A stretch of DNA of 64,000 nt from Anaerolineae bacterium (GTDB lineage: Bacteria; Chloroflexota; Anaerolineae; DUEN01), in contig JANXBS010000001.1 in the NCBI GenBank assembly GCA_025060615.1, positions 281,577 to 345,576 of the forward strand. Direction: 5' to 3'. Under the pieces are notes generated by a model that saw nothing but the letters and a program-made list of their open reading frames with translations, searched no databases and was not told the DNA's origin. The position numbers and the translations under genes are program-made. Shown here piece by piece: positions 35,576-44,313 of the stretch; positions within the stretch are counted from its first letter, which is position 1; every line of letters starts with the position of its first letter.

Positions 35576-35610
35576 GAAAGCGCAAGACGTACACAGCGCC
35601 TTGCGCTTTC
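35576..35610 (-). terminator. Terminator after the GH-A lipoprotein gene
   Basis: An 11-bp perfect stem GAAAGCGCAAG (35576-35586)/CTTGCGCTTTC (35600-35610). On the minus strand it is followed by TGTTTTGCC. It separates the upstream secreted-protein genes from the mre operon. Confidence 0.75.
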
Positions 35611-35702: not shown

Positions 35703-37073
35703 TCACGGGGCGTGCTTGCAGCGCGGCCGTCCTTGCACCTCATTCAGATACAGGCAGAGCTTCATATAGGCTGGCCGCCAGTGAATATCCGGATAGGCTG
35801 GCCCGATGATGGACCACCAGTACTGCTCATCTTGTTCAGTCCAGTTTACGTCCGGCATGTAGATTAGGCTCATTAGTCCGATCCACGGCCGCCAGTGTTC
35901 CTGCGCCCATTGATAAGCGCGCACTAGGTAATCTGCTTTCTCTTCCTCGCTGACGGCATGCCAGGCATACTCGGGGTGAATAGGATCGCTGGTCCAACCG
36001 AATTCCAGAATCACTACCCGGCGATTCACGTCGCCGTATCGTTCCATAATGCGCCGGATGTCTTCGACGTGCCGAAACGCGAAAAATCGCTCTCCGCCGT
36101 ATAACGGCTTATTTGCGGCTGCCTCGGCGGGGTCCAACTCGGGCGGGGCTTTATAACCAGCCGCATGGACGCCCAGCATATCGAAATAGCCATCGCTACT
36201 GCCGCCAATGGCTCGATATAGCTCATCGTAGAACCGCTCATCGGGCATTGCGTTGGCATCATCCGTGCCGGTGGGCGCCATGCCCGCCGTGATGACGATG
36301 GCGTTGGGATCGGCTTGCTTAATAGCAGTGTAGGCCTTCTTGAGCATGACCGCGTACTCAGCGGGGTTAGGGCGTTTGCGCCCCCACTCTCGCGCTAGGT
36401 TAGGCTCGTTCCAGATCTGATAGGCATGGATGCGGCCCCGGTAGCGGGCGGCCATTGCGCCCAGGAAGCGAGCGAAAGCATCGGCGTTTTGGGGCGGCGG
36501 CCCAGCCCAAATGGCCTTCTCTGGGTCCAAGCTGACCCGAGCGAGCAACTTCAGCCCTTTGTTGTTCACCTGCTGAACGACCCGGTCGGCGAATTCCCAG
36601 TTGTATTGGCCTGGACCTCCGCCTTCCATCAGCTCCCAGTCAAACGTCTGTTTGACCCAGTTGAAGCCCGCATCTTTTATCAATTGGAGATCACGGTCAG
36701 CTACCTCTGGACGCCACCACAGAAACGCCTGCACGCCGAAGTCTGGGGAAAGCATGGTCACAGGGGAGCTGCTCACAGGCGCGGGGCCTATTGGAACGGG
36801 CGTATTGGTGGGCGGGATGGGTGTGTCCGTCGGCGGCTCATTCGCATCAGCCGTCCCCTGAGGTGTAGGCGTAGGAGACGGCGCTTCCGCTTTCATCACC
36901 GGAGTTGGTGTATCAGTAGGCCGTGGCGTGGGGGTTGGACGCTCCAAGCGAGGCTTGGTCGGTGTCGGCGACGGCGCCGGCCTCTCTCTGGAACAGCCGC
37001 TTAGCGCTGCGGCGAACAATACCAAAAAGGCAATTACCACCTGGACGGTGCTAAACCATCGTTTCTGGGTCAT
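35703..37073 (-). CDS. Lipoprotein with clan GH-A glycoside hydrolase domain
   Basis: About 456 residues from ATG 37073. The signal peptide ends in a lipobox (ALSGC, Cys ~27). A long Pro/Thr linker (to ~110) precedes a TIM-barrel domain. Candidate catalytic residues are Glu ~223 in [13 protein letters not shown] (acid/base) and Glu ~357 in VVILEFGW (nucleophile), spaced as in GH39/GH5-like clan A enzymes. The domain is clearly paralogous to the C-terminal domain of the 37883-41080 protein (shared AYRAIK/AYTAIK, APTGT/TPTGA, HPSGYN/HAAGYK-type blocks). The substrate is unknown; a wall-linked or environmental polysaccharide is likely. Confidence 0.8.
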
Positions 37074-37158
37074 GAAACTCCTCGACAAAAGAGGTAGCGG
37101 CAAAGGCGCTCAATCGCCAGTTCTGGCAACCAGGCAAGCCCGCCCACCGCCGGATCGC

Positions 37159-37806
37159 CTACGACGAGGCGGAAGGGGTAAGTGTAGGCGGTGGGGGGAC
37201 GTTCACCACCGGAACGGCCATGGGATCACCACTTAAGGTTACGAGGCCACCGAAGACCCAACCGCTGCGCTCGCCTGGAAGGCAGCATATCTGCCACCAG
37301 GTGCCATCAGCGTTACGCCCGATCACCGTAAACGTATCTCCGCTCCTGGCAGTTCCAAGGATCGCATAAGCCACATCGGGCCCTTGGCGCACGCGCACAT
37401 TCTCCGTCGCTATAATCGTCAGAGTTACGGCAGCCGTCGGTATCACTTCGGCGGTCTGAGTTACGGCAACCGTCGGCGTCATACTAGAAGCCACCTGCGC
37501 AGCCGATGCGAAGGTCACCGTAGCAGTTACAGTGATTTCCGCCGTGGCCGTGAACGTGGAAGAGGCGGCGACGGTGGCAGTGGGCGTCGCAGTGGACGTC
37601 GCAGTGGGCAGGAGAGACAGCATTGGGGTCTCCGTGGGAGTCACGGTCAGCGTCGGGGTAGATGGTGACGGGAGCACAATGAGGGTGGGACGCGCGCCTA
37701 GAGACACCTCTTCTCCGGAGAGGAGAGGAACGGCCAGGCCAATGAGCGCTGCCATGATGATGACGGCAGCAATAATCAGGTGATTCCAGCGCAGCGCAGA
37801 GCTCAT
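37159..37806 (-). CDS. Membrane-anchored Thr-rich SH3-domain protein
   Basis: 215 residues: an N-terminal helix (IIAAVIIMAALIGLAVPLL), a Thr/Ala/Val-rich linker of ~100 residues with TATxTATPT-like repeats, then one SH3_3 domain (NVRVRQGPDVAYAILGTAR to GWVFGGLV). The SH3 contains GTWWQICC, closely matching GTWWQLCC of the SH3 in the neighbouring 1065-residue protein. Their C-terminal tails are also alike (VPVVNVPPPP versus VPVAKNIPEPP). Probably displayed in the cell wall. Confidence 0.78.
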   Translation of the reverse strand: MSSALRWNHLIIAAVIIMAALIGLAVPLLSGEEVSLGARPTLIVLPSPSTPTLTVTPTETPMLSLLPTATSTATPTATVAASSTFTATAEITVTATVTFASAAQVASSMTPTVAVTQTAEVIPTAAVTLTIIATENVRVRQGPDVAYAILGTARSGDTFTVIGRNADGTWWQICCLPGERSGWVFGGLVTLSGDPMAVPVVNVPPPPTLTPSASS

Positions 37807-37882
37807 CTAGGCCTCTCGCATAGAGTGAATCCCTGTGCTTCCTCTTCGCTTGTCTAAAGGAACGAGCACAGAGGTTCGTCCT

Positions 37883-40800
37883 CTATTTGGGCATAGCGGC
37901 AAGGGCTTGATAGACGGGCAAGGGGTTGCCGCCTCGGTCCACAATCCCCCATTGCTCTAGCTCAGTGCCGGGGTTGGTCATGCGGAAGTTAAGGTTCCAT
38001 AGAAAGGCGGGCCCGACGAAGCCCCAATTCTTCATCATCTGGTAAGCCCGCACAGTCCACTGCGCCTGCTCTTCCAGCGTGTTGTCATTGGCGTACTCAT
38101 AGCCTGGCGCCCCCACCCAACCAGAAGCCCAACCAAACTCCGTGGGCCAGATCCGCTTGTTCGCATCCCCATATTTCACCATGATGTTGCGATATCCCTC
38201 CATGGTCGAGCGGAAACTCCAGGAATGATGCGGAGAATTGCACGGGCCGCGGAATGATGATCCTTGCCGTGTGATGAAGTCACAGGCCTGCTCCCATGGG
38301 ATATCCGGCGCTACGTTGTAACCGCTGGGATGGGCGCCGATAGCATCCGAAACGTTCTTCAAGCCAGCCTGATACATCCGCTCTAAGTAGGTAAAATCGT
38401 CCATAGCGACGGGCGGCGGCGCCCCTGTGGGTGTCAACGCGCCGCTCACCACAATAGTCTGGGGACAGGCGGCTTTAATAGCCCGATAGGCAGCGGCCAG
38501 CAACTGGACATAGCGAGCTGGATCCAACGGCTCGCGCCCCCATTCGTAGTCCAGGTTCTGTTCATTCCACACCTCGATAGCGTTGATCTTGCCGCAGTAG
38601 CGGCCGGCTAATTGTCCCACGAAATTCGCATAGGTCCCCGGATCGGCAGGAGGCCCTTCCACGCTCAGGTCAGTGTTAGGTGGACGAGCCCAGGCCGGCG
38701 CTTTCACCACTGAGGCTAAAATCTTAAGCCCGCCGGCGTTCAGAGTGCCCACAACTCCATCTAACGTTCCCCAGCCATAGGCGCCTGGCGAGCCTTCGAA
38801 GTCCTTCCAAGGTAACTGAAACTTGACCCAGTCGAAGCCCATCCCCTTCGTCGCGTTGACAACAAAGTTTAGGTCAGCACCTCCCCACACCTGCGCCTGA
38901 ACTCCATAGCCGAAGGAGCCACTCCCAGCCGGCGGTGGCGCGCTACCGCCCGTCACCGCCGCTACGCTTCCCACCCCAGATGGCCGCTGAGGCGGCTCAG
39001 GGATGTTCTTGGCTACGGGGACGTTCGCCGTCGAACCGATCACCTGAACTAGGTCCGCGCGCACCCAGCCAACCTTGTCGCCGTAACAGCACAATTGCCA
39101 CCATGTCCCTTCCGGGTTCTTCCCTACGATCTCGCGCACTTCACCTGGCCTGGCTATGGTAATGCGGTTGTAGACGGTGCCGGGGCCCTCGCGGATATTA
39201 ACGTTAGCACTAAACCGAGCCTGTGGCGTTGTGGCGTTTGCGGGAGTAGGGATGGGTGTCGCAATTGCGGCCGGCGCTGGGGTAGGCGTGGGCGTGCGGG
39301 TTGCAACAGCTAGCGTCGTCTGCCCTTGGGGCAGTACAGGCCGGCCGTTATCCACGATCACAGCCTCGATTTGTACTGTCTCCCCCGGCCGGTCGGGGAT
39401 AGGGACAGCGAATTGATCCTCGCTAAGCGGCCGCTGGTCGCTTGCCAACTCGCCCTCTGATGGGCTGCTCACCCGCCAGATAAGCGCAAGCTGACTCCGG
39501 CGTTGGACCAGGTCACCCATCTGGAAGGCTCGCGCGACCTGCCAAATCTCCGGATCTGCGTCAGCCGCCAGGAGCGATTGCAGTACTACTCCGCCCAAGT
39601 TGTAACGGCTGACGATGTTGAGCTTGTGGCTAAGGCTAGCCGCGTTTTCCAGCCAGATAGTGCGGGGATAGCCCTGCATGTCTATATACTGATATGTCTG
39701 CATTCCCACGGATTCGTCTAACGTTAAGGCGGTAGGTTGACGCTCACGGCGTAACTGAACCATTATCTGCTGTCCTGGCTCTGCTACAGGCTGCTGGACA
39801 ATCATTTCCCCGAGCAATGGGGCAAGTGCTTCGCTATAGGATTTAAGCAACAGGTAGCGTCCCGCCTGTTCCACGCTTCGAGCCGGCAGCACCAGGTAGA
39901 TCTTGCTGCGTTCCACTTCGCCTGTCGCCCATGCCAGGAGCGCTTCAGCCTGGCCGCCGGGAGCCCATGCCTTTGGGTCTATCGGGGCCGGGATGAGCAA
40001 GGCATCCGCATATTGCCCTAGCGTACGCCAGTCGTAGCCGTAGGTGTCCCAGCGATCCGCTGAGACTTGGCGCGGCGGCTCAACGCGCACAGAGAGGGTC
40101 TTACCCTGCGCATGCAGGCGGTCAGCCAGCTCCTTAATGAACTGGTTGTACTCAGCTTGCAAGTTAGGATCGAGGCCACGATAGTCCACGTCTACGCCTG
40201 GCCACAGGTTCGATACGGCCAACTCCTCAATCACCGTGAGCTGTGTAAGCTGCATGCTGGGGTCAATGAGCAAGTTATCAAAGAGGTCAGTTCGCACAAC
40301 GCCATCTTCGCCCCAGTTGCGCAACGTAGGGATGACTGCGTAGGTACCATCGGCTGCAGGTTTGGGCAGCGCGGCCGGATCACCGTCAAAGCCGCCGTCC
40401 CCCCGCAGGTAAAGGCCTGCTGCGTATACCGTTGAGAGCGCATCTATCGCGCCGGCGGGGATCATCCCACCCTCGTTCAGATCAGCCGCAATGGCAGCTG
40501 GCCGAACCTGGGCCTGCATCACCATCACTGATCGCGGTACATACCCCACTCGGGCTTCGATCAACTGATCTTCGAGGATGAGCTGGCTGGGCACAAACCG
40601 CCAGCGCATACCATCCCACTCATAGACGCTTAATGTCTCCCATGGCTCCGCGTCAGTAGGGATGGGGATCGTAATGATGGCGCCGTGAGGTTGCTCGCCA
40701 CGAATCAAGATCTGATAAAGGGGGCTTTTGGGCACCAGATCATTGGGAATGGCCTCGGCCGCCGCACGCAGCTCTGCTCCGGCCTCGCCAGCTAAGAAGT

Positions 40801-41080
40801 CTGCCATCGGCACGCTTACGAGGCGCGCTAGGGTGCGACCACCGGTCAACACTTCCGGTGGGAAAGTCACCTGTGTGCCATCGGGATCGGTCACCGATCC
40901 TAGCTCCGATGTGATGCGCGTGTAGCCACTGTTGATCACTCGATCGTACAAAGAAATCGGAGGCGACAGCAGCACGGCGAGCACTAGCAGCGGCAGGATC
41001 ACATAATTGACCAGCCGGCTGCCGGGCCCTTCGAGCCAACGGGTCAAGTTGTTCAGCACAGGGATTTCGGTTCGCTCCAT
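37883..41080 (-). CDS. Membrane-anchored protein: GH18-like (inactive), SH3 and clan GH-A domains
   Basis: 1065 residues. An N-terminal membrane helix (~23-45) precedes a GH18/YaaH-like TIM barrel (~200-560). Its active-site strand reads WPGVDVDYRGL; the DxxDxDxE motif of GH18 becomes PGVDVDYR, so the catalytic Glu is Arg301 and the first Asp is Pro. After a Thr/Pro linker an SH3_3 domain follows (~655-715, with NVNIREGPGTVYNR and GTWWQLCC). The C-terminal clan GH-A barrel (~770-1065) keeps both Glu candidates: E840 in EVWNEQN and E981 in WPTEFGWAS. Likely a surface enzyme whose first barrel binds rather than cuts. Confidence 0.8.
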   Translation of the reverse strand: MERTEIPVLNNLTRWLEGPGSRLVNYVILPLLVLAVLLSPPISLYDRVINSGYTRITSELGSVTDPDGTQVTFPPEVLTGGRTLARLVSVPMADFLAGEAGAELRAAAEAIPNDLVPKSPLYQILIRGEQPHGAIITIPIPTDAEPWETLSVYEWDGMRWRFVPSQLILEDQLIEARVGYVPRSVMVMQAQVRPAAIAADLNEGGMIPAGAIDALSTVYAAGLYLRGDGGFDGDPAALPKPAADGTYAVIPTLRNWGEDGVVRTDLFDNLLIDPSMQLTQLTVIEELAVSNLWPGVDVDYRGLDPNLQAEYNQFIKELADRLHAQGKTLSVRVEPPRQVSADRWDTYGYDWRTLGQYADALLIPAPIDPKAWAPGGQAEALLAWATGEVERSKIYLVLPARSVEQAGRYLLLKSYSEALAPLLGEMIVQQPVAEPGQQIMVQLRRERQPTALTLDESVGMQTYQYIDMQGYPRTIWLENAASLSHKLNIVSRYNLGGVVLQSLLAADADPEIWQVARAFQMGDLVQRRSQLALIWRVSSPSEGELASDQRPLSEDQFAVPIPDRPGETVQIEAVIVDNGRPVLPQGQTTLAVATRTPTPTPAPAAIATPIPTPANATTPQARFSANVNIREGPGTVYNRITIARPGEVREIVGKNPEGTWWQLCCYGDKVGWVRADLVQVIGSTANVPVAKNIPEPPQRPSGVGSVAAVTGGSAPPPAGSGSFGYGVQAQVWGGADLNFVVNATKGMGFDWVKFQLPWKDFEGSPGAYGWGTLDGVVGTLNAGGLKILASVVKAPAWARPPNTDLSVEGPPADPGTYANFVGQLAGRYCGKINAIEVWNEQNLDYEWGREPLDPARYVQLLAAAYRAIKAACPQTIVVSGALTPTGAPPPVAMDDFTYLERMYQAGLKNVSDAIGAHPSGYNVAPDIPWEQACDFITRQGSSFRGPCNSPHHSWSFRSTMEGYRNIMVKYGDANKRIWPTEFGWASGWVGAPGYEYANDNTLEEQAQWTVRAYQMMKNWGFVGPAFLWNLNFRMTNPGTELEQWGIVDRGGNPLPVYQALAAMPK

Positions 41081-41308: not shown

Positions 41309-41551
41309 CTATAAGCTGACAAGAAGCCCCGGTGGCGTCACGACGGCCATTCTAGCATAGGGTGTATCGTTTTGGCAAACAGGGTTAGAATTCATAGGTG
41401 AGTTGTTGAAGTAGCGGCCACTGTAGCTGTCGATCTGGATATCAAGCGGGCCGAGGAGAAGCCATGTCTCCAACGGAACCATCGGATCTCCGCTTGCGGG
41501 GGGATCGCTCAACTGGCAGATTGCGGCGATCCGGTCTCCGGCGATCCCCAT
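41309..41551 (-). CDS. Small hypothetical protein or gene remnant
   Basis: An ~80-residue frame from ATG 41551 (AGGGAAG upstream); an earlier ATG is at 41596. Codon use resembles real genes here (many G/C third positions). The central stretch LETWLLLGPLDIQIDSYSGR looks folded. No family is recognised. The remainder of the gap (41081-41308) shows nothing I can interpret beyond short frames. Confidence 0.4.
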   Translation of the reverse strand: MGIAGDRIAAICQLSDPPASGDPMVPLETWLLLGPLDIQIDSYSGRYFNNSPMNSNPVCQNDTPYARMAVVTPPGLLVSL

Positions 41552-41611: not shown

Positions 41612-43246
41612 TCAGACCTTGGCCTGGGGCCGTTCTTCCATAGCGACTAGCTCACGCAGTCGCTGGATGGCAGCTGGAATGTGAGCCAAGGGCAGATGCT
41701 CTAAGATGATAGGAAGGTCTGGCCGGCGCGTCCGTAGGAAATCCAGATAGAGCTGCTGTGGAAAGACTCCTTGACCAAACTCCGGTGTTGCCACCTCAGC
41801 TCCCTCAGCGCTGACGTCCTTGAGATGGGCCAGCACGAAGCGATGCTCAAAACGGCGGAGAAGCTCGGCTGTGATACGCTCGCGTGCCGGGATTAAGTGC
41901 CGCGATAGGTAATTGTATGGGTCGAGTACGAGCCGCAGATGCGGGGAGGGGAATCGCTCAAACAGGCCGATCAGCCGCCCGTGGGTGCACAGTACATGGT
42001 TGACGTATCCCTCCAATGCTAGGATGGAGCCATGTTTCTCTGCCACTGGAAGTAGCTCTTCCAGTGACTCACAGAGCAACGACCATGCTTGGTCGCTCCA
42101 GTTCTCGTGCACGGGCAGCCAATCGTGCTCCGGATGAAGCGTTCCCGTTTCTGTGGCGACAATGCCCGTACCAAACAGCGGGGCCAACTCCAGGCAGCGC
42201 TTCAGAAAATCCAGGTTTTCTTGCCGTTTACTTGCCTTGGGCGCTATCAGGTTGCGATATCCCGCTAACCCAACCACCGTGATGCCATTCTCCTCTAGTT
42301 GAGCTCGCAGGCTGGGGACCGCCGAAGGGTGGTTCAGAGCCTCCAGCAACAATTCGCCACTGAGCTGTACAGCGCTCAAGCCCAGCTCTCGGAAGCGTTC
42401 GATGAGGCGTTGCCACTCACCGCGTTGAAACTCCCTCGAGAAGGCACCTAGCCGCGGCCAGGGCTCCGGCTTCAGGAGCTCTGGGAAGCAAAACCGGGTA
42501 AAGCTAATATCGCGGGTGATCAGCTCGGCTGGGCCGGCGGGCGTCTCCATCACGATCCAGCCGTCAAAACCGATCTCGTGGAGCGCGCGGGCGCTCTCGG
42601 CGTAGTCCACGAGCCCCAGGCCTGGAGGACAGTCGCCAGGGCCGACGCGGGCATCCTTCATATGCACCTGCTGGATCAAATCGCCCAGAGCCCGAATCTC
42701 AGTCGCCGTATCCATGCCGCGCCAGACCACGTTCGCTAGGTCGAAGTAACACCCGAAGGCATTGGAGCTGACTTCGGCGGCCATGCGGCGGATGTCACTG
42801 GCGGGGAGTGTGCCTTCGTAGCACAGCCGAACGCCCACCTCTGCCGCCACCGGGCACAGCTGGCGAAAACCTTGAACGGCCCGCTCGAAATCGGCTTCTG
42901 TCACGATCTCGCCTTGGAAGAAGAAGGGCACCAGGATCACCTTGGCCCCCAACTCGGCCGCCCACCGGATCGCCTGACGGATGTCCTCCGCGGCCGCCTC
43001 AGCGACCGTTGGATCGGCGCTAGCCAACCCGCCGTGGTTGTGCTCCCCTAGCATCAGCGAAGGGACGGCCAACCCGCTTGCCTGGCAAGCTTGCTGGAGC
43101 CGCTTCAGCCGTTCCTGCCCCGGCGCCCGCAGCTGGTCGCGGGTCAGCATGACTTCGACACCCTCGAATCCTAACCGCTGAGCTTGTTGAAACGTGGCCA
43201 TCTCATCAGCGCCCCTGACCAGGTATTCTACGGCTCCTAGTCGCAT
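41612..43246 (-). CDS. Tandem sugar phosphate isomerase/epimerase fusion
   Basis: 544 residues containing two consecutive AP-endonuclease-2-type TIM barrels. Domain 1 (~1-255) shows LGFEGVEVMLTRDQL, CYEGTLPASDI, CYFDLANVVWRG, QVHMKDARVGPGD and GWIVMETPAG. Domain 2 (~270-544) shows LGLSAVQLSGELL, LALEGYVNHVLC, LVLDPYNYLSRH and LAHLKDVSAEG. The Glu, Asp, His and Glu metal-ligand pattern of xylose-isomerase-like barrels is visible in both. The ATG at 43246 overlaps the previous stop (TGATG). Most relatives are single-domain, so this is a fusion or internal duplication. Substrate unknown (inositol/ketose class). Confidence 0.82.
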   Translation of the reverse strand: MRLGAVEYLVRGADEMATFQQAQRLGFEGVEVMLTRDQLRAPGQERLKRLQQACQASGLAVPSLMLGEHNHGGLASADPTVAEAAAEDIRQAIRWAAELGAKVILVPFFFQGEIVTEADFERAVQGFRQLCPVAAEVGVRLCYEGTLPASDIRRMAAEVSSNAFGCYFDLANVVWRGMDTATEIRALGDLIQQVHMKDARVGPGDCPPGLGLVDYAESARALHEIGFDGWIVMETPAGPAELITRDISFTRFCFPELLKPEPWPRLGAFSREFQRGEWQRLIERFRELGLSAVQLSGELLLEALNHPSAVPSLRAQLEENGITVVGLAGYRNLIAPKASKRQENLDFLKRCLELAPLFGTGIVATETGTLHPEHDWLPVHENWSDQAWSLLCESLEELLPVAEKHGSILALEGYVNHVLCTHGRLIGLFERFPSPHLRLVLDPYNYLSRHLIPARERITAELLRRFEHRFVLAHLKDVSAEGAEVATPEFGQGVFPQQLYLDFLRTRRPDLPIILEHLPLAHIPAAIQRLRELVAMEERPQAKV

Positions 43247-44313
43247 CACTGCACCTCCTCCAGGGCCACTGGTGCCCCATCCCGATCGGCGGAAAGACAG
43301 GCAGCCAGTGTGATCTGCAAAGAAAGGAGATTGTGGTAAGCTGAGTTGTATGGCTCTCGTCCCTCGGCGATGGCACAGAGTAGCTCGCCCATAGTGCCAG
43401 CGAAGCCGTCGGGGAACCATTGCCCCTCTAGCTGATAGCGACAGGTCACGCCTTTCGTCTCCAGTTCCACAAACTCCTCGCCTAAGACGCTGCCACGGAT
43501 GGTTCCCTCGGCGCCGTGGATCCAGAAAGGATGACCACGCCGGTAGGTTTCTGAACACCCTATGCCGCGAATCATGGCGCTGGTTCCATCGGCATAGGCG
43601 ATCTCTACCCACATGCCCCACGGGGTTTTCCCTGTGGCCGGCTGGTTAGGCGTCCGGTAATCGCGCGCCCGCACAGTGGCGACCACCTTACCCTCTGTCC
43701 AACAACGCGTGATGTCTATCCAATGTATCGAATAGTCGTAGATGGCAAAGTGCCGCAGTTCATCGAAGTGAGTGCCTGGAATCCAGTTAAACTTCATGTC
43801 ATATAGATGGGTGACCGCCAGCACGTCGCCTATGATGCCCTGTTGAATCAGGAGGGTGGCAATGCGCCAGGGCGGAGCCCAGCGCCCATTCTGGTTGACT
43901 GCGATCTTTAGCCCTCGCCGCTCTGCCTTCTCCACGACCTCTCTGGCCTCGCGGACGGTGAGTGCTAGGGGCTTCTGAGCCAGGATGTGTTTGCCTGCCT
44001 CGATAGCCTGGTGCATGAGTGGCACGCGCTGATCCGGATGAGTGGCGATGTCTACCACCTCGATGTCGGGATGGGACAACAGCTCCTCTAGGCTGCGAAA
44101 GACGTGCTGGACGCCGAATTCCTCCTGAACGCCGCGCGTGGCCTCAGGCACGATGTCGTAGACGCCGACGACATTTAGGCCGTACTGCTTGTACGCCTTG
44201 AGATGAGCGCTTTTGACGATATTGCCGCAGCCGATGATCCCGATGCCCGGACGGTAACCGACAGGTAAACGTGGCTTGTAATCGAGCTGGGTAGGTACAA
44301 CAGATACTTGCAT
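43246..44313 (-). CDS. Gfo/Idh/MocA family NAD(P)-dependent oxidoreductase
   Basis: 355 residues from ATG 44313 (GGAG upstream). The Rossmann motif is GIGIIGCGNIVKSAHLKAY. The conserved EKP motif appears as QKP (HILAQKPLALT). The second domain has IYDYSIHWIDITRCW, supplying the usual active-site His. It probably oxidises a sugar or inositol hydroxyl. It lies between the UroD-like gene and the double isomerase, and this trio suggests degradation of an uncommon cyclitol or sugar (inference). Confidence 0.88.
   Translation of the reverse strand: MQVSVVPTQLDYKPRLPVGYRPGIGIIGCGNIVKSAHLKAYKQYGLNVVGVYDIVPEATRGVQEEFGVQHVFRSLEELLSHPDIEVVDIATHPDQRVPLMHQAIEAGKHILAQKPLALTVREAREVVEKAERRGLKIAVNQNGRWAPPWRIATLLIQQGIIGDVLAVTHLYDMKFNWIPGTHFDELRHFAIYDYSIHWIDITRCWTEGKVVATVRARDYRTPNQPATGKTPWGMWVEIAYADGTSAMIRGIGCSETYRRGHPFWIHGAEGTIRGSVLGEEFVELETKGVTCRYQLEGQWFPDGFAGTMGELLCAIAEGREPYNSAYHNLLSLQITLAACLSADRDGAPVALEEVQ

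What the first reader, a model, noticed from the sequence alone, without database searches (positions are those of the whole stretch)
35703..41080. SH3/GH-A family in split and fused forms, one with an inactive GH18 barrel
Three adjacent genes share modules. One is a GH-A lipoprotein, one a Thr-rich SH3 protein and one a fusion of GH18-like, SH3 and GH-A. The SH3 domains share GTWWQ(I/L)CC and the GH-A domains share several blocks. In the fusion the GH18 motif DxxDxDxE reads PGVDVDYR, so the first barrel should not cleave. The set sits directly upstream of the cell-shape operon, separated by a terminator. It may be a wall- or sheath-remodelling surface system with a carbohydrate-sensing pseudoenzyme.
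Basis: partly seen in the sequence, partly recalled or inferred. Interest (0 to 1): 0.62.

Follow-up and report, generated by a model that had tools for sequence, protein, structure and literature searches.

The report
Dead-barrel anchor carrying a live glycosidase
This Chloroflexota bacterium has a membrane-anchored surface protein in which a chitinase-like domain has lost its catalytic parts but carries an apparently working sugar-cutting domain, and most members of its class have the same undescribed protein, usually next to a second gene of the same cutting type.

Summary
The 1065-aa fusion (37883-41080, minus) reads: membrane helix, ZU5-like domain, GH18 barrel, small beta domain, SH3b, PslG-type GH39 barrel. 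Arg301 replaces the GH18 proton donor. Of 96 family proteins 95 lack that Glu; 11 of 11 ordinary GH18s of the phylum keep it. The loss looks ancestral, with one possible regain. The other GH18 catalytic motifs (beta6 M-x-Y, beta7 YGYDW, beta8 Trp) are lost too, and the old catalytic face is no more conserved than the opposite face. That favours a structural barrel over a sugar sensor. By contrast, the GH39 catalytic Glu pair is intact in 75/75 fusions and 50/51 partner lipoproteins. The family occurs in 315/396 genomes of the class, mostly once; another GH39 gene follows in 59/76 loci. The lipoprotein barrel is an ancient sister of the fusion barrel. The MreB neighbourhood is real here but rare elsewhere, and the shared SH3 motif is common in this lineage. 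Best reading: a pseudo-GH18 scaffold that anchors an active endoglycosidase acting on an envelope polysaccharide. Substrate and activity are untested.

The parts
37883..41080 (-). Fusion protein, 1065 aa: membrane helix, ZU5-like, pseudo-GH18, small beta domain, Pro/Thr linker, SH3_3, PslG-type GH39
   Evidence: ORF; Pfam; PDB sequence matches; models
40955..41017 (-). Predicted N-terminal membrane helix (res about 22-42), followed by the conserved PP of LLxPPIS
   Evidence: sequence; hydrophobic helix in first 110 aa of 78 of 84 long-form proteins; P40 and P41 99% conserved
40496..40921 (-). ZU5-like domain (res about 54-195)
   Evidence: AlphaFold2 model pLDDT 93.1; Foldseek top 11 hits all ankyrin ZU5, best E 5e-6
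39521..40432 (-). Catalytically dead GH18 barrel (res about 217-520)
   Evidence: PF00704; profile match to 5jh8, YdhD, YaaH, SleL E 1e-33 to 1e-22; Foldseek SleL 2e-20
40178..40201 (-). PGVDVDYR, the DxxDxDxE site, with Arg301 at the donor position
39305..39490 (-). Small beta-strand domain after the barrel (res about 531-592)
   Evidence: secondary structure of model
39047..39205 (-). SH3_3 domain of the fusion (res 626-678)
   Evidence: PF08239 E 8.7e-7
37895..38914 (-). PslG-type GH39 barrel of the fusion (res about 723-1062); acid/base Glu840, nucleophile Glu981
   Evidence: PslG match E 1e-17; catalytic pair kept in 75/75 fusions
37159..37806 (-). Thr-rich SH3_3 protein, 215 aa; membrane helix at the N-terminus; same-place gene in relative L040
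   Evidence: PF08239 E 3e-10; 63% identical SH3 in L040
35703..37073 (-). GH39 lipoprotein (ATG start; lipobox LSGC); acid/base in WNEPN, nucleophile in LEFGW
   Evidence: catalytic pair kept in 50/51
35576..35610 (-). Intrinsic terminator between the lipoprotein gene and mreB
41349..41378 (-). Promoter-like site upstream of the fusion (TTGCCA-18-TAGAAT, 10 of 12)
   Evidence: the count of such sites is not above chance (4 found, 2.6 expected)

Best explanation
The fusion is a membrane-anchored cell-surface glycosidase. Its N-terminal half (membrane helix, ZU5-like domain, catalytically dead GH18 barrel, small beta domain) serves as an extracytoplasmic scaffold or protein-interaction platform. 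A Pro/Thr linker and an SH3b domain then hold a catalytically intact PslG-type GH39 endoglycosidase close to the wall. The adjacent lipoprotein supplies a second, anciently diverged GH39 of the same kind. Together they trim or release a beta-linked envelope polysaccharide made by the cell itself. Shown here: domain order, class-wide conservation, ancestral loss of all GH18 catalytic motifs, strict retention of the GH39 catalytic pair, tandem arrangement, sister relation of the two GH39 barrels. Inferred: outside location, scaffold role, endo action, self-envelope substrate.
For: Donor Glu absent in 83/84 long and 12/12 short forms but present in 11/11 ordinary GH18s; beta6, beta7 and beta8 GH18 motifs lost as well. 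Catalytic face not more conserved than the opposite face in the pseudo family (1.59 vs 1.60 bits at equal sampling), unlike ordinary GH18s (1.03 vs 1.48). Barrel still under purifying selection, dN/dS 0.10-0.27 in pairs with dS below 1.3. GH39 Glu pair intact in 75/75 fusions, 50/51 lipoproteins. Present in 315/396 genomes of the class, mostly once. A GH39 gene follows on the same strand in 59/76 loci, median gap 63 nt. PslG is a retaining endo-glycosidase of a cell's own exopolysaccharide cluster (PMC11912335).
Against: No activity, substrate or location has been measured. Neighbouring genes vary; only a few loci show polysaccharide genes (UDP-glucose dehydrogenase-like in 8, flippase-like in 6). 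17 of 76 loci were counted without a GH39 partner gene. GH39 activities are diverse, so PslG-like substrate choice is not implied. Asp299 and Tyr300 of the old site are still common (71/84, 78/84), so some pocket function is not excluded.
Confidence: 0.5

Rival explanations
1. The dead GH18 barrel is a lectin-like sugar sensor, as in animal chi-lectins, that recognises peptidoglycan or another polymer and steers the GH39 domain.
For: GH18 proteins without the Glu act as lectins in animals (PMC1945033); chitinase-like proteins are among the Foldseek hits (SI-CLP, IDGF-2, Ym1). Asp299 and Tyr300 remain common.
Against: The beta8 Trp (11/11 in ordinary GH18s) is replaced by E/Q/R/D, beta6 Tyr mostly by Pro, beta7 YGYDW is lost. 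The old catalytic face shows no extra conservation.
Confidence: 0.2
2. The GH39 enzymes serve nutrition: a surface system that cuts foreign polysaccharides for uptake, with the GH18-like half as a mere stalk.
For: GH39 enzymes act on many plant-type beta-glycosides (PMC11912335); the genome has at least five further PslG-like proteins.
Against: Near-universal, mostly single-copy conservation through the class is more like housekeeping than diet; no transporter or polysaccharide-utilisation genes recur as neighbours among the shared gene clusters.
Confidence: 0.2
3. The set is a dedicated part of the MreB elongation machinery.
For: Directly upstream of mreBCD-PBP2-rodA in the window; fusion-lipoprotein-murA-mreB in four genomes of other families.
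Against: Only 5 of about 77 loci; a strong terminator separates the set from mreB here; not adjacent in the closest relatives.
Confidence: 0.06
4. The GH18 barrel is still an enzyme with relocated catalytic acids.
For: Acidic residues near the mouth are common (Asp299 71/84, Glu/Asp404 72/84, Glu/Asp334 54/84).
Against: No invariant Glu or Asp on the catalytic face and no extra conservation there; the apparent Arg301-Glu334 coupling does not survive correction for relatedness.
Confidence: 0.04

Closest known systems
PslG (GH39 endoglycosidase of the Psl exopolysaccharide cluster, Pseudomonas aeruginosa)
   Same: Both GH-A barrels of the set match it best among solved structures (E about 1e-17) and keep its acid/base and nucleophile Glu columns
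   Different: Distant; here fused to ZU5, pseudo-GH18 and SH3b, or as a lipoprotein; no Psl-like synthesis cluster next to it in the window
SleL/YaaH and YdhD-type bacterial GH18 (spore cortex-lytic type)
   Same: Closest GH18 relatives by profile and fold
   Different: Those keep the catalytic Glu and other motifs (aligned); here they are lost; no LysM; fused to other domains
Chi-lectins (GH18 proteins without the catalytic Glu: YKL-40, Ym1, SI-CLP, IDGF)
   Same: GH18 fold with the proton donor replaced
   Different: Independent loss in bacteria; here the sugar-subsite Trp and Tyr are lost too
ZU5 domain of ankyrins (and related ZU5/GAIN-type folds)
   Same: Fold of the N-terminal domain
   Different: Bacterial; sequence below the Pfam threshold; no HFS-type self-cleavage motif (Pro182 in 62 of 67 at the expected place)

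Membership tests
GH18 (catalytic enzyme family) | GH18 sequence profile and barrel fold | tested here: met
   54 of 67 members match PF00704 at E 0.01 or better (the window protein itself is just under the cut-off); Foldseek to SleL 2e-20
GH18 (catalytic enzyme family) | DxxDxDxE with the proton-donor Glu | tested here: not met
   Glu absent in 95 of 96 family proteins, present in 11/11 ordinary GH18s of the phylum
GH18 (catalytic enzyme family) | beta6 Tyr, beta7 YGYDW and beta8 Trp of the active site (as seen in ordinary GH18s of this type) | tested here: not met
Chi-lectin-like GH18 pseudoenzymes | GH18 fold with catalytic Glu replaced | tested here: met
Chi-lectin-like GH18 pseudoenzymes | Retained sugar-binding cleft | tested here: not met
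   Judged from residues only: subsite aromatics lost, no conservation of the face; binding itself not testable here
GH39 / PslG-type | Sequence relation to PslG | tested here: met
   E about 1e-17 for both barrels; no Pfam GH39 model matched
GH39 / PslG-type | Acid/base and nucleophile Glu pair | tested here: met
   75/75 fusions, 50/51 lipoproteins; residue roles from PMC11912335
GH39 / PslG-type | Retaining endoglycosidase activity | not testable with these tools
   needs an assay
ZU5 domain | ZU5 fold | tested here: met
   Model pLDDT 93.1; top 11 Foldseek hits are ankyrin ZU5, TM-score 0.53-0.58
ZU5 domain | Pfam ZU5 sequence profile | tested here: inconclusive
   3 of 67 members, best E 0.005; the window protein none
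ZU5/FIIND/GAIN self-cleaving domains | HFS-type self-cleavage motif (motif from own knowledge) | tested here: not met
   Expected place reads x-P-x-S/A; Pro182 62 of 67; alignment of this place by eye
MreB elongation operon | Conserved linkage or shared transcript with mreB | tested here: not met
   Terminator between; 5 of about 77 loci; absent in closest relatives

The most novel reading that the evidence does not exclude
The ZU5 plus pseudo-GH18 protein is a core, old component of the Chloroflexota envelope: a short form without the glycosidase in other families of the phylum, a long form with fused GH39 in the window's class. It would be a structural platform around which a yet unknown envelope polysaccharide is processed in these bacteria, which lack a conventional outer membrane.
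Probability: 0.3. Interest if true: 0.72.

Novelty: new variant of a known kind. Interest (0 to 1): 0.5.

Why it matters
Chloroflexota envelopes are poorly understood: they lack the usual outer-membrane genes, yet a Caldilineae member has a multilayered envelope (PMC13319060). A surface protein kept by about 80% of the genomes of one class, with a short form elsewhere in the phylum and no NCBIfam name, is a concrete handle on how that envelope is built. It also gives a clear bacterial GH18 pseudoenzyme that is older than the class and fused to a strictly conserved, apparently live glycosidase, so the division of labour between a dead and a live barrel can be tested directly.

Tried and rejected
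Shared SH3 motif as a sign of recent duplication: rejected; the motif is found in several unrelated SH3 proteins of the genome and the two SH3 domains are only 41% identical, no closer than to others. Recent duplication of the GH-A barrels: rejected; two clades with support 100 each. The extra GH39 genes between fusion and lipoprotein are repeated local duplications of the fusion barrel. Arg301-Glu334 salt bridge in place of the catalytic Glu: Fisher p 2e-4, but the independent-pairs test gives no support, so dropped. ZU5-type self-cleavage: no motif. Literature searches for this family, or for bacterial GH18 pseudoenzymes, returned nothing on point. Other phyla could not be scanned by profile; the pattern search of 84,980 species found only Chloroflexota but reaches only close relatives.

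Full report
What is there. Three minus-strand genes lie between 35703 and 41080. In transcription order: a 1065-aa fusion, a 215-aa SH3 protein 76 nt later, and a GH-A lipoprotein whose better start is the ATG at 37073 (85-nt gap). A terminator with a 14-pair stem at 35610-35576 closes the set before mreB. The spacing suggests one transcript; that is inference.

Domains. Pfam finds GH18 (res 294-500) and SH3_3 in the fusion, SH3_3 in the small protein, and only general GH-A models in the lipoprotein. Against solved structures, the C-terminal barrel of the fusion and the lipoprotein both match PslG (E about 1e-17), so they are PslG-type GH39. PslG is classed as GH39 and was shown to be a retaining endo-beta-glucosidase with Glu165 and Glu276 as catalytic pair (PMC11912335). 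The N-terminal half was modelled from a 67-sequence alignment: pLDDT 93.8, pTM 0.90. Its barrel is closest to SleL, chitinases and YdhD (Foldseek; profile search). The first domain, modelled alone (pLDDT 93.1), has ankyrin ZU5 domains as its top 11 matches.

How widespread. The N-terminal half has a homologue in 315 of 396 genomes of the class (185 of 234 high-quality genomes; 186 of 222 genera), mostly one copy, commonly in open frames of about 950-1150 aa. Named hits are all Chloroflexota, labelled Anaerolineae, Caldilineae or similar. A profile search of the phylum shows three layers: the long form in the class and in a few other genomes (G397, G405, G409); a short form of about 550-640 aa (one of 837 aa) without the GH39 barrel in other families, which in the loci read stands among lysS, greA-like, trypsin-like protease, rsmD-like and coaD-like genes; and ordinary GH18 proteins. 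Two families of the class (f27, f53) lack it even in nearly complete genomes.

The first barrel is dead, and long since. At the donor position the long form has R 60, Q 12, H 3, K 2, A 2 and single S, G, V, D, E (84 proteins, the window's included); the short form L 5, R 2 and single H, P, M, T, S (12); the ordinary GH18s E 11 of 11. The single Glu (L118) sits in a group that otherwise has Gln and has lost the preceding Asp. On a tree built without columns 301 and 334, ordinary GH18s, short form and long form separate (support 100, 100, 85), and the Glu state needs only two changes. The other GH18 motifs are gone too: beta6 Met and Tyr (11/11 in ordinary GH18s), beta7 YGYDW (9-10 of 11), beta8 Trp (11/11). 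Residues at the catalytic end of the strands are clearly conserved in ordinary GH18s (entropy 1.03 bits against 1.48 at the opposite end); the pseudo family, cut to the same sample size, shows no such contrast (1.59 against 1.60). The barrel is still under purifying selection (dN/dS 0.10-0.27 in pairs with dS below 1.3). So it is kept, but apparently not for its old pocket. Arg391 is kept in 83 of 84 long forms; its role is unknown.

The second barrel is alive on paper. Both catalytic Glu are present in 75 of 75 fusions with this domain, 50 of 51 lipoproteins and 32 of 33 extra copies. In 59 of 76 loci with enough sequence a GH39 gene follows on the same strand within 6 kb, median gap 63 nt (49 with the lipoprotein type, 25 with a fusion-type copy); one more locus (L102) has it with an overlap that the counting rule excluded. 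In an 82-sequence tree the lipoproteins form one clade (100), the fusion barrels with the extra copies another (100), and the two join apart from five other PslG-like proteins of the same genome (82). The pair is therefore an old duplication, and the extra SH3 plus GH39 genes arose several times from the fusion barrel. 'Split and fused forms' is thus real, with the fused form the standard one.

SH3. The motif GTWWQ(I/L)CC is shared, but close variants occur in several unrelated SH3 proteins of the same genome; the two SH3 domains are 41% identical and no closer than to others. The SH3 gene has a same-place counterpart in L040 (63% in the domain) and similar-sized SH3 genes at that place in L042 and L087.

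Neighbourhood. The mre operon (mreB, mreC, PBP2 and rodA confirmed) follows in the window. It does not follow in L040 (6.6 kb read), and in L039 an unrelated convergent gene is next. Four genomes of other families have fusion-lipoprotein-murA-mreB (L106, L107, L110, L116). A divergent gene for a membrane protein without a Pfam match stands upstream in 18 loci; a UDP-glucose dehydrogenase-like gene and a flippase-like gene are near it in 8 and 6 loci. This leans to envelope glycans but is not strong.

Mechanism. The most economical account is a membrane-anchored protein whose dead barrel and ZU5-like domain form a platform, with linker and SH3b domain setting the reach of a live endoglycosidase, and a lipoprotein partner with the same kind of active site. 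A sugar-sensing role for the dead barrel is possible but gets no support from residue conservation. The substrate is unknown; the cell's own envelope polysaccharide is favoured because the system is near-universal and mostly single-copy in the class. This step is inference.

Known or new. The parts are known kinds: GH18 barrels without the Glu act as lectins in animals (PMC1945033), PslG-type GH39 enzymes and ZU5 folds are known. The combination, its class-wide conservation and the old pseudo-GH18 family were not found in the papers searched or in NCBIfam. That is absence in the libraries held here, not proof of novelty.

Limits. The ordinary GH18 set is 11 proteins taken from the better-scoring profile hits. 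Pocket geometry was judged without coordinates.

Noticed in passing
L007 (G000:C31:8748-9749) and L008 (G000:C14:69087-70040): Two further PslG-like proteins of the same genome align Arg and Ala at the GH39 nucleophile column, so they may be GH39 pseudoenzymes; the alignment there is distant.
   Followed up: no
L114:3599-6313: A family member with an RNA polymerase alpha C-terminal-like domain fused at the N-terminus and an N_BRCA1_IG domain in place of the GH39 barrel.
   Followed up: no
L143, L146, L150: The short form (ZU5-like plus pseudo-GH18, no GH39) sits in a repeated housekeeping neighbourhood: lysS, greA-like, trypsin-like protease, then rsmD-like and coaD-like genes.
   Followed up: partly
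L093:10889-12268 and 17 other loci: A gene for a membrane protein without any Pfam match is divergently transcribed directly upstream of the fusion in 18 loci; possible functional partner.
   Followed up: partly
L166, L167, L171: Divergent members of about 950-1000 aa without a detected GH39 barrel in the fusion, followed by a separate fusion-type GH39 gene: a natural split version; two of these C-terminal parts were scanned and have no Pfam match.
   Followed up: partly
window 41612-43621: One 669-aa ORF holds two xylose-isomerase-like barrels (AP_endonuc_2, two stretches).
   Followed up: no
window 38735-39070 of G000 contigs C10, C13 (L022, L027, L032): WW[QR]ICC is a recurring signature of SH3_3 domains in several unrelated proteins of this genome and its family; the paired Cys may be a lineage feature.
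   Followed up: no
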